DNA of 64,000 nt from Bordetella parapertussis (GTDB lineage Bacteria; Pseudomonadota; Gammaproteobacteria; Burkholderiales; Casimicrobiaceae), in NCBI GenBank assembly GCA_943331295.2, contig CALQLA020000025.1, forward strand, positions 1-64,000, written 5' to 3'. Below the pieces are notes generated by a model. That model saw nothing but the letters and a program-made list of their open reading frames with translations. It had not been told where the DNA came from and ran no database searches. Numbering within the stretch: the stretch's first letter is position 1; every line of letters begins with the position of its first letter. A program made the translations under genes and the position numbers. This document shows, in pieces, positions 15,303 to 24,059 of this stretch.

Positions 15303-15860
15303 CTACTGGCATAGAGCGGGGCGTGGCTCGGCGCCGTTCACATCGCACACCCTCTTCCGCATCATCCCGTCGTTGTAATGGGCGACGCCGGGGTTGCTGC
15401 GACTCTGGCAGGCCGAATGCTGCAAGATTTGGTAGACAAGAAATCCTACCGGCACGATCTGGTCGCAGGCGTGCAGGGTCATGCACAGCGGCTTCGTTCC
15501 GCTGCCGTCGTTGACCAGCCGGCCCGCATTGTCGACCGACAGCAAGATGTCGGGAGGGATCAGTTGCCCTCCGGAGGGCGTATTCACGTACCCGAACGTC
15601 CCCGCGGGCTTCTGGACGAGGCACTGGTGCAGCGTGGGCTCCGCCGCGGTGAACTTGCCGAAGGCCACCGGGATGGTGGCCCAGGGGAAGCCGACGCGGG
15701 ACTTGATCGCGTTGGTCTGGGCGTCGATCACGGCGACGCTGTCGGTCGCCTGGTCAGCCACGTAGACGTAGCGACGGTCGGAGATGGTGATGGACGAGAG
15801 CGGCAACGCGCTCGGTGGCGCAGACATCGAGCAGGCGGCCCGCGAACCCGGCGCCTGCAT
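15303..15860 (-). CDS. YVTN-type beta-propeller-repeat-like protein, small; N-terminus uncertain
   Basis: RRYVYVADQATDSVAVIDAQTNAIKSRVGFPWATIPVAFGKF. Confidence 0.5.
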   Translation of the reverse strand: MQAPGSRAACSMSAPPSALPLSSITISDRRYVYVADQATDSVAVIDAQTNAIKSRVGFPWATIPVAFGKFTAAEPTLHQCLVQKPAGTFGYVNTPSGGQLIPPDILLSVDNAGRLVNDGSGTKPLCMTLHACDQIVPVGFLVYQILQHSACQSRSNPGVAHYNDGMMRKRVCDVNGAEPRPALCQ

Positions 15861-16023
15861 CGTCGGGCCAGGACGCGGTCTCGCCGCGCAGGACCCGGCA
15901 GAGCAGGCGAGAAGGCGAACGGTCAGGCTTTTCCTCGAGGAAAGCGTGGCCGGTCCCCTTTTCCCGGCTGTCGTTCCAGGTCAGGGCGGGTCCGGGGGGG
16001 TGTCCGCATCTCTCGACGAGCCG

Positions 16024-19000
16024 CTAGGGAGAGGCGGCTCGGCGCACCACCATGGACGGATCGCCCAGCAGGATCCAGGTGCGGCGCACGTCCATGTTGG
16101 TGGTGGCGGCCTTGGCGGCGGCGGCCGCCTCGCCGAGCGTCATCGGGGTCGCGCCGTACAGCCTACCGATCATCGCCTGGTTCATCTTGGACTGCGGCTC
16201 CGGCTCGGTCAGTCCCGACGACGCCCACACCGCCACCGCGCCACCGTTCTGGGCCTTGATCAGCGCCTTGGCCAGCGGATAGGTGTACAGGTCCTGGATG
16301 AACCCGTTGAGGCAGGTCATCGCCAGGAACACCGGCGTCCGGTCGTCATTGGCGAGCTCGAGCGCGCTGGTCGAGTCGAACAGCCCGGACCAGAGTTCGT
16401 TCGAGCCGTGGCCGACGTAGTTGACCAGGGCCTTGCCCGCATTGAGGCCGGCGAGCAGCTCGCCGTACGGGTCCGGGTCGCTGGCCTGGAAAACGTTGGT
16501 CACCGTCAGCGACCGCGGCAGCAACGCCGCCACGCTGGCGGAGTAGGGCGCGAAGTCCTCGCGCTCGTTGAGGGGGGCGCCGGTCACCAGCAGGGCCTCG
16601 TTCTTCCAGCTGGCCGGAGGCGTCGCATCGTAGCCCACGATCCGGGCCACCATCAGGTCGGCCTCGGCGGCCGACTCCGCCGGCAGGCGTCCGATCGCCA
16701 GCTCCGGCAGGCCGTCCTCGTTGAAATCGACGAACCAGTCGTCCGACGCCGTCTCCAGGAACGCCGTGTCGACCAGCTTGACCGGCAGCAGGTCGGGCAC
16801 CGTCGTGTCCATGAAGTTGCGCGGATCGAAGGTGCCGTTGCCCAGCAGCAGCACGAAGCGCGGCTTGGTCGTCCAGCCCGCCTTCGCGGTCGCGAGGAAA
16901 TTCCGCAGCGCGAACGGCGTCTTCACGCCGAAGCTGAATTCGTCGTAGATATCCTGCACGTCGATGCGCGCGACCTTGAGCCCCTTCGAGGTGCGCAGCG
17001 CCGCCAGCGGGGCGGCGCTGTCGAGCAGGCTCGCGTGGCCGAGAATCACCAGGTCGTAGCCGGCCCGCACCGCATGCCACGACGAGGGGCGGTTGGCGGT
17101 CACGGCGGGCGCCTTGATCTGGTCGTCGGTCACGGCCAGCAGCGTGCGCGTGCCGGTGCCGACGGTGGGCACGATGGTGAACGCGTAGTTCGGCGCGCTG
17201 CCGCTCACCTTGCCCGTCACCAGCGATGGGTTGGCCGGATCGGTGATGTCGAGCACCGTGATCGCCTGCGTGCCGAAGCCGCCGATGGTCGTCGTTTTCT
17301 TGACGGGGGCGGTGAAGCGCAGCTGGTCGCCGTCGGCAAGGTAGCTGTGCGGGTAGGTGAGCTGCACGTCGTCCACGACGGTCACGTCGTCCGGGCTCGC
17401 GCCGGTCAGGGTCAGCGTGTTCGGCCCTTCGTTCACCACGGCCACCGGGAAGCTCGCCTCGACGTTGGCCTGGCCCCTGAAGGACACGGCGCCCACCGGC
17501 CTCCCGTTGAGCGACACCGCCACCGCGTGCGGCCCCATGGTCGCGCCCTGCAGCCTGACGCGCAGCAGGGACGCGCCACCGGCCGGATGGTAATGCGCCA
17601 CGACGATCGGCTGATCGGTCGGCGCGTCGGTGATGATCGGCCCGAAGAAGTTGTTGCGGTCGCCGTTGGAGAGCTCCGTGAAGTAGATCGTCCGCGGCTT
17701 CCAATCGACGGTGGCCGGGAAGCTCGCCACACCGGCCGCGCCCCTGGACGTGCCGCCGGTGCTCATCCGCAGGCCCGGCGCCGCGCCGGCGACCAGCCAG
17801 TACGATTGGGTGTCCGACCAGACCGTATCGATCCCCCGGCCGTAGAAAAGGACGGCGTCGGTCGGATCGAACTTGCCCCCCTCCTCGCCGGCGACGAGGA
17901 TCGGCTGCTGCATGCCGTTGACGTAGAGCTGCAGCTTCCGCGGATCGGTCTTCGCGCTGATCCCGGCGGCCACCAACTGCGGCTGCGTGATGCGATACCA
18001 GCCTTCGGCTTTCGCCTCGAGCCGCACCGCGGGGCCGGCGGCCAGCGTGTACTGCTGCGCGACGGCGGCCGGCGAGGCGGCGCCGGCCGTGTTCGCGGCC
18101 GCGCTGACGCCCACCGATTTCAACGACAAGCTCTTGGCGTTGGGGCCCGACAGGCCGCTCACGCTGCCCACGCTGGAGAGCGGCACCGCAATGTCCGGAT
18201 CGTCCAGCGCGCCGGCGCTCCCGGTGGCCACGGGGCGATTGCGCAGCATCTGCACCGTGCCCGGGGCCCGGGTCGCGATGTCGGTCTCGGCGCCGAGCTT
18301 GGACACCGCCGGCCCGTACCACGTCTTCTTGCCGCTCAGGTCCACCTCTTCCAGCCAGTACACCGCGCCGGCACCGACGCCGCTATCGCGCCAGCGGCGC
18401 GTCTGGCCGGCGGTGAAGGTGGTGCCGGCGCCGCCGATCAAGGCCGTGCCGGCGAGCAGCGACGCGTTGAGCTTGAGCTTCTGGCCCTTCTCCTCGCGGT
18501 AGAGGTTGAAGCCGAGGTTGTTGACCTCGCGGCCGGTGATCAGCTGGATCAGGTTGCCGCTTGCGTCCGGGGTTGCGGTGAAGGACTGCAGGCGGATCTG
18601 CGTGGGCGCTGCAATCGTCGCCGTCGGCACAACCTCCCCGGTGCTCAGAATGGTCGACGTGTAGAGGCTGGTGCCATTCGAGAACAGGATTTGGGCCGAT
18701 TGGCCGGAAGAGAGGCCGGTCGCAGCGGTTCCCACGAACAACTTTCCGGCGGTGCCTCCTCCCCCGTTGTAGGGACCCGCCCAGCCGGCAATGATGAGCG
18801 TTCTGTCCGCCGTCCAGCCGACGCCGCTGCTGGCGGCAAACTTCAACGAATGAACATTGCTCCCCAGGCTGATATTCGAATCGCTCGTCAATTGCAGGGT
18901 CGACGTACTGCTGACGATCGTATTTGTGGCGATGCCCGTCGTAGCGAGCGTGCCGCCGTTCAACACCACCTGTGAAGCATAGCTGGCCGTGGTGGAGACG

Positions 19001-23698: not shown

Positions 23699-23702
23699 GA
23701 GC

Positions 23703-24059
23703 CTAGACCTCGGTTACGAGTACGGGTTCGATCAACCCGGCGCTTTGCAGGCGCGCGATGAATTCCAGCGCGTCGCCTTCCGCCGTGCCTGCGTCGACCT
23801 CGAATTCGGTGTGGACGCTTTCGACCATCTGCGCAACGGTCGTTTGGCCGTCGATGCGGTTCCAGATGAAGGAAGCCACTTCGCCGAGGTTGTAGATGGA
23901 GTCGAGGTCCCCGATGCGGCCGCGGACCGGCACGACAATGGTCTCGCCCGCTATGTTGCGAGAGGCGAATTCGCCTTTCTTCGCAAAGCAGGCGGCCAGG
24001 ATGGGCTGGCTGTGGTCGGACAAGGGCGGGATGCAATTGACATCACTATCAGCTTGCAC
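23703..24059 (-). CDS. PqqD family (RRE-like) protein
   Basis: YNLGEVASFIWNRIDGQTTVAQMVESVHTEFEVDAGTAEGDALEFIARLQSAGLIE. Confidence 0.88.
   Translation of the reverse strand: MQADSDVNCIPPLSDHSQPILAACFAKKGEFASRNIAGETIVVPVRGRIGDLDSIYNLGEVASFIWNRIDGQTTVAQMVESVHTEFEVDAGTAEGDALEFIARLQSAGLIEPVLVTEV

What the first reader, a model, noticed from the sequence alone, without database searches (positions are those of the whole stretch)
15303..24059. Candidate undescribed RiPP-type system: PqqD + rSAM/SPASM + short Cys peptide + HPr-kinase-like + S26B/PATR/C25 protein
Six closely packed minus-strand ORFs in transcription order: PqqD-like (24059-23703), rSAM/SPASM (23698-22385), 69-aa peptide (22377-22168), HprK-like (22133-21237), 1738-aa multidomain ORF (21240-16024) and a YVTN-like ORF (15860-15303). 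The first five are separated by 34 nt or less or overlap. Established: PqqD/RRE with rSAM-SPASM next to a short peptide is the hallmark of RiPP loci, and HprK-like kinases and S24/S26 peptidases occur in some RRE-containing clusters. Inference: the PATR repeats plus C25 peptidase are an extracellular or maturation arm not usually found in such loci, making this architecture potentially new.
Basis: partly seen in the sequence, partly recalled or inferred. Interest (0 to 1): 0.92.

Follow-up and report, generated by a model that had tools for sequence, protein, structure and literature searches.

The report
Unnamed radical-SAM phosphopeptide cassette with gingipain-like protein
This is a real, widespread but unnamed bacterial gene set that appears to make a small, chemically cross-linked and phosphorylated peptide and sits beside a giant surface protein carrying a gingipain-type protease; the combination has not been described in any paper I could find.

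Summary
Five packed minus-strand genes encode a PqqD-type RRE, an rSAM/SPASM enzyme, a 69-aa peptide, an HprK-fold kinase and a 1738-aa S26B-PATR-C25 protein. The sixth ORF (YVTN-like) is not part of the unit.

The set is conserved. Of 47 rSAM homologues with full flanks, 47 have PqqD, 46 the peptide, 46 HprK, 43 S26 and 40 C25. Most are in Acidobacteriota (25 of 396 sampled species); others are in Myxococcota, Nitrospirota and Pseudomonadota. The peptide is under strong protein-level selection. It has a lasso-type YxxP leader motif, LRPEEAVLGxCK, three Cys, and a C-terminal Ser in 79/79 loci (119/120 database hits; the other Thr). This genome holds a second cassette.

Best explanation: a RiPP pathway. 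PqqD presents the leader, rSAM modifies the Cys-bearing core, the HprK-like kinase phosphorylates the C-terminal Ser, and the soluble S26B domain removes the leader, probably after Ala39. The C25 protein is exported and PorU-like; its role is inferred.

Closest described systems are phosphorylated lasso peptides and the LPP family (Nat Commun, May 2026). Neither has rSAM or C25, and tested LPP features are not met. Verdict: a new variant of a known kind.

The parts
23703..24059 (-). PqqD-type discrete RRE, 118 aa
   Evidence: PF05402 E=6.6e-17; nearest NCBIfam is the lasso-peptide PqqD chaperone NF033536 (42.7 bits, cut-off 80); present in 47/47 full-flank loci
22385..23698 (-). Radical SAM/SPASM enzyme, 437 aa; CX3CX2C (C42, C46, C49), SPASM Cys 266, 284, 321, 324, 330, 333, 352, plus C-terminal CX2C pairs 372/375 and 422/425
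   Evidence: PF04055; all rSAM and SPASM Cys invariant in 82 sequences, C372 82/82, C375 80/82, C422 70/82, C425 68/82; no NCBIfam equivalog above cut-off
22168..22377 (-). Precursor peptide, 69 aa: leader with Y24xxP27 ... LRPDEA39, predicted core VLGNCKTSSTSGPAHSGTCQAVVFCTTQGS; C44, C58, C64; C-terminal Gly68-Ser69
   Evidence: 79 aligned homologues at the same position; Y, P, V, G, C44, K45 and C64 in 100%, last residue Ser in 79/79
21237..22133 (-). HprK-like kinase, 298 aa; H150, P-loop G166HSGAGK172T, S188DDR191
   Evidence: AF2 model and Foldseek to HprK/P and PEPCK; motif spacing like that of lasso-peptide kinase BsfK
16024..21240 (-). 1738-aa fusion: S26B/SpI-like peptidase, export segment, PATR repeats, PorU-like domain, C25 peptidase
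   Evidence: same S26-C25 fusion recurs in many Acidobacteriota loci
20911..21240 (-). Soluble archaeal-type signal peptidase I-like domain (residues 1-110), Ser31/His69/Asp89, no N-terminal TM
   Evidence: TIGR02228 41 bits; triad read from sequence, order and spacing like LppS S29/H68/D93
20707..20775 (-). Putative internal signal sequence, residues 156-178, ending AxA
   Evidence: sequence reading; weak here (below my hydropathy threshold) but a clear hydrophobic segment sits at the same place in most fused homologues
17050..18045 (-). PorU-like N-terminal domain
   Evidence: NF033707 PorU from residue 1066, 216.7 bits (cut-off 420); best structural match PorU 6za2, E=3.5e-34
16048..17049 (-). 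C25 (gingipain-type) peptidase domain with invariant His and Cys (H552, C584 in A4 numbering)
   Evidence: PF01364 E=1.3e-71; dyad invariant in 14 aligned members

Best explanation
A RiPP biosynthesis cassette. The PqqD protein binds the YxxP leader of the 69-aa precursor and presents it. The rSAM/SPASM enzyme installs radical cross-links, most likely thioethers, on the core that carries three conserved Cys. The HprK-like kinase phosphorylates the invariant C-terminal Ser69. The soluble S26B domain (Ser31/His69/Asp89) cuts the leader off in the cytosol, most likely after Ala39 (LRPDEA|VLGNCK...). The same polypeptide continues through an export segment into a PorU-like, gingipain-type C25 protein outside the inner membrane, which probably processes, captures or is controlled by the mature peptide. 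Shown by computation: gene conservation, real precursor, catalytic residues, folds. Inferred: every chemical step, export, and the C25 role.
For: Conserved cassette: PqqD 47/47, peptide 46/47, HprK 46/47, S26 43/47, C25 40/47, and no other gene conserved around it. In an even sample of Acidobacteriota all 27 rSAM matches have the peptide beside them. Leader: Y and P 79/79 at a fixed distance from EA, as in lasso and LPP leaders recognised by discrete RREs. Kinase: HprK fold, motif as in lasso kinases. Lasso HprK-type kinases recognise a C-terminal Ser with little regard to the rest (PMC8498205); here the last residue is Ser in 79/79 loci and Ser or Thr in 120/120 database hits, written with six codons. 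S26: soluble SpI-type peptidase is the proven leader peptidase of LPP, presented by the RRE (PMC13381572). C25: 20 of 25 cassette-bearing Acidobacteriota have C25 against 120 of 371 others, p=3e-6; in relatives 2 of 2 against 1 of 59.
Against: No chemistry has been tested. No transporter is conserved in the cassette, so peptide export is unexplained. Two loci keep rSAM, peptide and C25 but lack HprK and S26 (L084, L123), so those two steps are not universal. C25 is missing near some loci, and C25 is common in Acidobacteriota without the cassette. Acceptor residues for thioethers are not obvious. The cleavage site rests on spacing by analogy.
Confidence: 0.62

Rival explanations
1. The precursor is matured into a redox or cofactor-like molecule (as for PQQ or mycofactocin) used by the cell itself rather than secreted; the C25 protein is a neighbour of unrelated function.
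For: PqqD plus rSAM/SPASM is also the PQQ and mycofactocin logic; rSAM profile hits include mycofactocin and PqqE models; the closest solved relative by sequence is PqqE; no transporter conserved.
Against: The core between the fixed Cys is highly variable (108 distinct cores among 116 hits), unlike a cofactor precursor. Distribution is patchy (2 of 61 relatives, 25 of 396 Acidobacteriota). C25 linkage is strong, even where HprK and S26 are gone.
Confidence: 0.13
2. The peptide is a modified ligand, regulator or attached tag for the C25 protein: the PorU-like domain acts as a transpeptidase or is held latent, and the peptide with its phosphorylated C-terminus is its substrate or inhibitor.
For: PorU, a sortase, is the best match by sequence and fold; S26 and C25 are physically fused in many loci; C25 stays with rSAM and peptide in L084 and L123; the own genome has two cassettes and two C25 genes.
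Against: No T9SS marker was found (no positive control). No direct link between peptide and C25 active site is visible. Some loci lack C25.
Confidence: 0.17
3. The S26 domain does not cut the peptide but releases the giant exported protein from its own signal region; the leader is removed by a host protease.
For: S26 is fused N-terminally to the exported protein, right before its signal segment.
Against: S26 is a separate gene in many loci, including the second cassette of this genome, and is present in loci where no C25 is near (L061, L069). It has no membrane anchor, whereas signal peptidases act at the outer face of the membrane. LPP gives a direct precedent for leader cleavage.
Confidence: 0.08

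Closest known systems
LPP, linear polyphosphorylated peptides (PMC13381572, 2026)
   Same: discrete RRE, YxxP leader, soluble archaeal-type SpI leader peptidase, HprK-like kinase
   Different: [quoted passage not shown] leader consensus YxxPxVLxHQxIxFETxxS and phosphorylation at core Ser3, neither seen here; LPPs are described from Bacillota
Phosphorylated lasso peptides of the paeninodin type
   Same: discrete PqqD-like RRE, YxxP-type leader, HprK-like kinase, C-terminal Ser
   Different: no macrolactam cyclase and no B2 leader peptidase in the conserved neighbourhood; rSAM instead
SynChlorMet (SCM) cassette, NCBIfam TIGR04248-TIGR04251
   Same: PqqD-like, HprK-like and rSAM/SPASM proteins together
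   Different: one rSAM instead of two; all components far below the SCM cut-offs (32.5/100, 92.5/400, 13.5/125 bits)
PorU and gingipains (family C25)
   Same: C25 catalytic domain with His-Cys dyad and PorU-like N-terminal domain
   Different: fused to an S26B domain and passenger repeats, no T9SS C-terminal domain, not in Bacteroidota; below the PorU cut-off (216.7/420 bits)
Sactipeptides and ranthipeptides
   Same: rSAM/SPASM enzyme with a Cys-bearing precursor
   Different: YxxP leader, only three Cys, HprK-like kinase and C25 partners; thioether not shown

Membership tests
RiPP (general) | short genetically encoded precursor next to an RRE and a modifying enzyme, conserved across genomes | tested here: met
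RiPP (general) | post-translational modification of the core | not testable with these tools
   needs co-expression and mass spectrometry
LPP | discrete RRE, SpI leader peptidase with Ser/His/Asp triad, HprK-like kinase | tested here: met
   triad S31/H69/D89 read from sequence
LPP | leader consensus YxxPxVLxHQxIxFETxxS | tested here: not met
   only Y, P and the Glu at -2 agree; consensus here is YxxPx[LVI]x2[IV]xLRPEEA
LPP | phosphorylated Ser at core position 3 | tested here: not met
   position 3 of the predicted core (VLG) is an invariant Gly; depends on the predicted cleavage site
LPP | NTP transferase and MsbA-like transporter in the core gene set | tested here: not met
   no further conserved gene within 10 kb of rSAM
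Lasso peptide | macrolactam cyclase and B2 leader peptidase | tested here: not met
   no further conserved gene beside the five named ones
Lasso peptide | YxxP leader motif bound by a discrete RRE | tested here: met
   Y and P in 79/79, PqqD best fits lasso_PqqD; binding itself not tested
SCM cassette | ScmC, ScmD, ScmE, ScmF above curated cut-offs, two rSAM proteins | tested here: not met
Sactipeptide / ranthipeptide | Cys thioether to alpha or other carbon made by the rSAM | not testable with these tools
   three conserved Cys are compatible
T9SS sortase PorU | score above NF033707 cut-off and T9SS present | tested here: not met
   216.7 of 420 bits; SprA search negative but without positive control
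Peptidase family C25 | C25 domain with catalytic His and Cys | tested here: met
   activity not tested

The most novel reading that the evidence does not exclude
A new, very large RiPP class in which a radical-SAM-crosslinked peptide with a phosphorylated C-terminal Ser is made for, and processed or attached by, a co-encoded surface C25 sortase/protease, with the cytosolic leader peptidase physically tethered to that surface protein.
Probability: 0.25. Interest if true: 0.9.

Novelty: new variant of a known kind. Interest (0 to 1): 0.74.

Why it matters
Over 5,500 precursor clusters and over 5,000 rSAM relatives sit in public data without a family name that I could find. They are mainly from Acidobacteriota, a major soil phylum with few known natural products. 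The cassette unites three things that I have not found described together: radical SAM chemistry, HprK-type phosphorylation and an SpI leader peptidase. It also brings in a gingipain-type protein. Its parts are small and suited to direct test in E. coli.

Tried and rejected
YVTN ORF as a cassette member: rejected, no homologue in 80 loci. In-frame TGA in rSAM of L111 as selenocysteine: rejected, the codon lies past the conserved domain and looks like the normal stop; L105, also flagged, was not resolved. S26-C25 fusion as a sequencing error: rejected, it recurs in many genomes. Integration at tRNA-Gly: the cassette lies just 3' of it, but no second copy of the tRNA end exists in the window; flanking genes have no counterpart in three congeneric genomes, so no empty site could be shown. 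Membership in SCM, LPP and lasso families: tested, not met. Literature: ten searches of the open library; only LPP and phosphorylated lasso papers are near.

Full report
Observation. The first five are spaced by 4, 7 and 34 nt and a 4-nt overlap. Pfam and NCBIfam confirm PqqD, radical SAM, C25, PATR and an archaeal-type S26 domain. The HprK identity was marginal by sequence. A model from 31 homologues (pLDDT 94) finds HPr kinase and PEPCK as the top fold matches in the PDB, at probability 1.0, although overall TM-scores are low. The sixth ORF scores below its repeat family's cut-off and has no relative in the other loci, so I leave it out.

Conservation. I used an alignment of rSAM relatives to fetch 80 loci from species genomes and looked for window proteins in their ORFs. 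Of 47 loci with at least 9 kb downstream, PqqD is in 47, the peptide in 46, HprK in 46, S26 in 43 and C25 in 40. An all-against-all comparison of neighbours found no other conserved gene. As an independent sample I searched 396 Acidobacteriota species: 25 carry the rSAM, with 27 copies, and every copy has the peptide beside it. In relatives of the window's own organism only 2 of 61 genomes have it. The other one is the uncultured beta proteobacterium Ja1_bin-0608: its matching contig has the same number and length as that of L008. The window, its paralogue and that genome form one clade among otherwise mixed phyla, which fits horizontal spread.

The precursor. The family reads Y-x-x-P-x-[LVI]-x2-[IV]-x-L-R-P-E-E-A-V-L-G-x-C-K, then a variable stretch with GP, a second Cys, a third Cys six residues from the end, and Gly-Ser at the C-terminus. 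The last residue is Ser in 79 of 79 loci and in 119 of 120 database relatives, the remaining one being Thr. Two further loci in one genome, L098 and L122, also end in Thr. Invariant residues use many synonymous codons, and close pairs differ mostly at synonymous codons, so selection acts on the protein. The database holds 5,536 clusters of this peptide at E up to 0.001, with no family name among those listed.

How it probably works. Lasso peptide leaders carry YxxP and are bound by discrete RREs. [quoted passage not shown] The kinase here has the His, P-loop and Asp motif of the lasso kinase BsfK, at nearly the same spacing (PMC10368454; alignment). In LPP biosynthesis a soluble archaeal-type signal peptidase with a Ser/His/Asp triad removes the leader when the RRE presents it, 16 residues from the Tyr (PMC13381572). 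The S26 domain here has the matching triad and no membrane anchor. The distance from Tyr to EA is fixed at 16 residues in all 79 precursors, with Glu at -2 and a small residue at -1. I therefore predict a cut after Ala39 and a 30-residue core. The rSAM has a complete SPASM set and a further C-terminal CX2C pair invariant or nearly so. Thioether formation on the three Cys is the likeliest chemistry but is not shown.

The giant protein. S26 is fused to the C25 protein in many loci and separate in others. In fused forms a hydrophobic segment ending in a signal-like site follows S26, so the peptidase would be cytosolic and the rest exported; in the window this segment is weak. The C25 part matches PorU best, then gingipains, by profile and by fold, and its His-Cys dyad is invariant. 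Two members end in a MYXO-CTERM-like tail, which supports surface location. C25 is associated with the cassette beyond chance (p=3e-6 in Acidobacteriota, p=0.0016 in relatives; these tests treat genomes as independent, which related species are not). It stays with rSAM and peptide in two loci that lack HprK and S26. What C25 does to the peptide is open.

Second cassette. Contig C50 of the same genome has PqqD, rSAM (74% identical), peptide and HprK, followed by a subtilase-like and repeat-bearing giant ORF that runs off the contig. Contig C76 starts inside a similar repeat ORF that ends in C25, followed by a free-standing S26. That the two contigs adjoin is inference.

Novelty. No tested family fits (membership table). 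The system works like phosphorylated lasso or LPP maturation with radical SAM chemistry in place of ring closure or glycosylation. I did not find it described in the open literature searched, but subscription journals and preprints are not covered.

Noticed in passing
G000 contig C50:29932-31191 and C76:8436-9428 (L002, L088, L094): Second copy of the cassette in the same genome, with a subtilase-like start to the giant protein and a separate S26 after C25.
   Followed up: partly
L124:1263-4917: S26 domain fused to a SAM-dependent methyltransferase between the peptide and HprK; the peptide ends in Gly-Thr.
   Followed up: no
L123:886-5987 and L084:9986-21275: Reduced cassettes: rSAM and peptide next to C25 with no HprK and no S26; L084 has two C25 ORFs in a row.
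   Followed up: partly
L040:7245-9677 and L080:12835-15123: C25 proteins end in a MYXO-CTERM-like tail (Gly-Cys, hydrophobic segment, Arg-rich end), which suggests surface anchoring.
   Followed up: no
window 24358-24431 (-): tRNA-Gly(CCC) about 300 nt upstream of the cassette on the same strand, so the cassette lies at its 3' side; no repeat of the tRNA end in the window.
   Followed up: partly
L019:4847-11389: Cassette split into two divergent arms: PqqD-rSAM on one strand, peptide-HprK-C25 on the other.
   Followed up: no
L066, L069: Different order, rSAM-S26-PqqD-(peptide)-HprK, with no C25 in reach.
   Followed up: no
window 29878-30246 (+): Small Cys-rich ORF with a signal-peptide-like start.
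   Followed up: no
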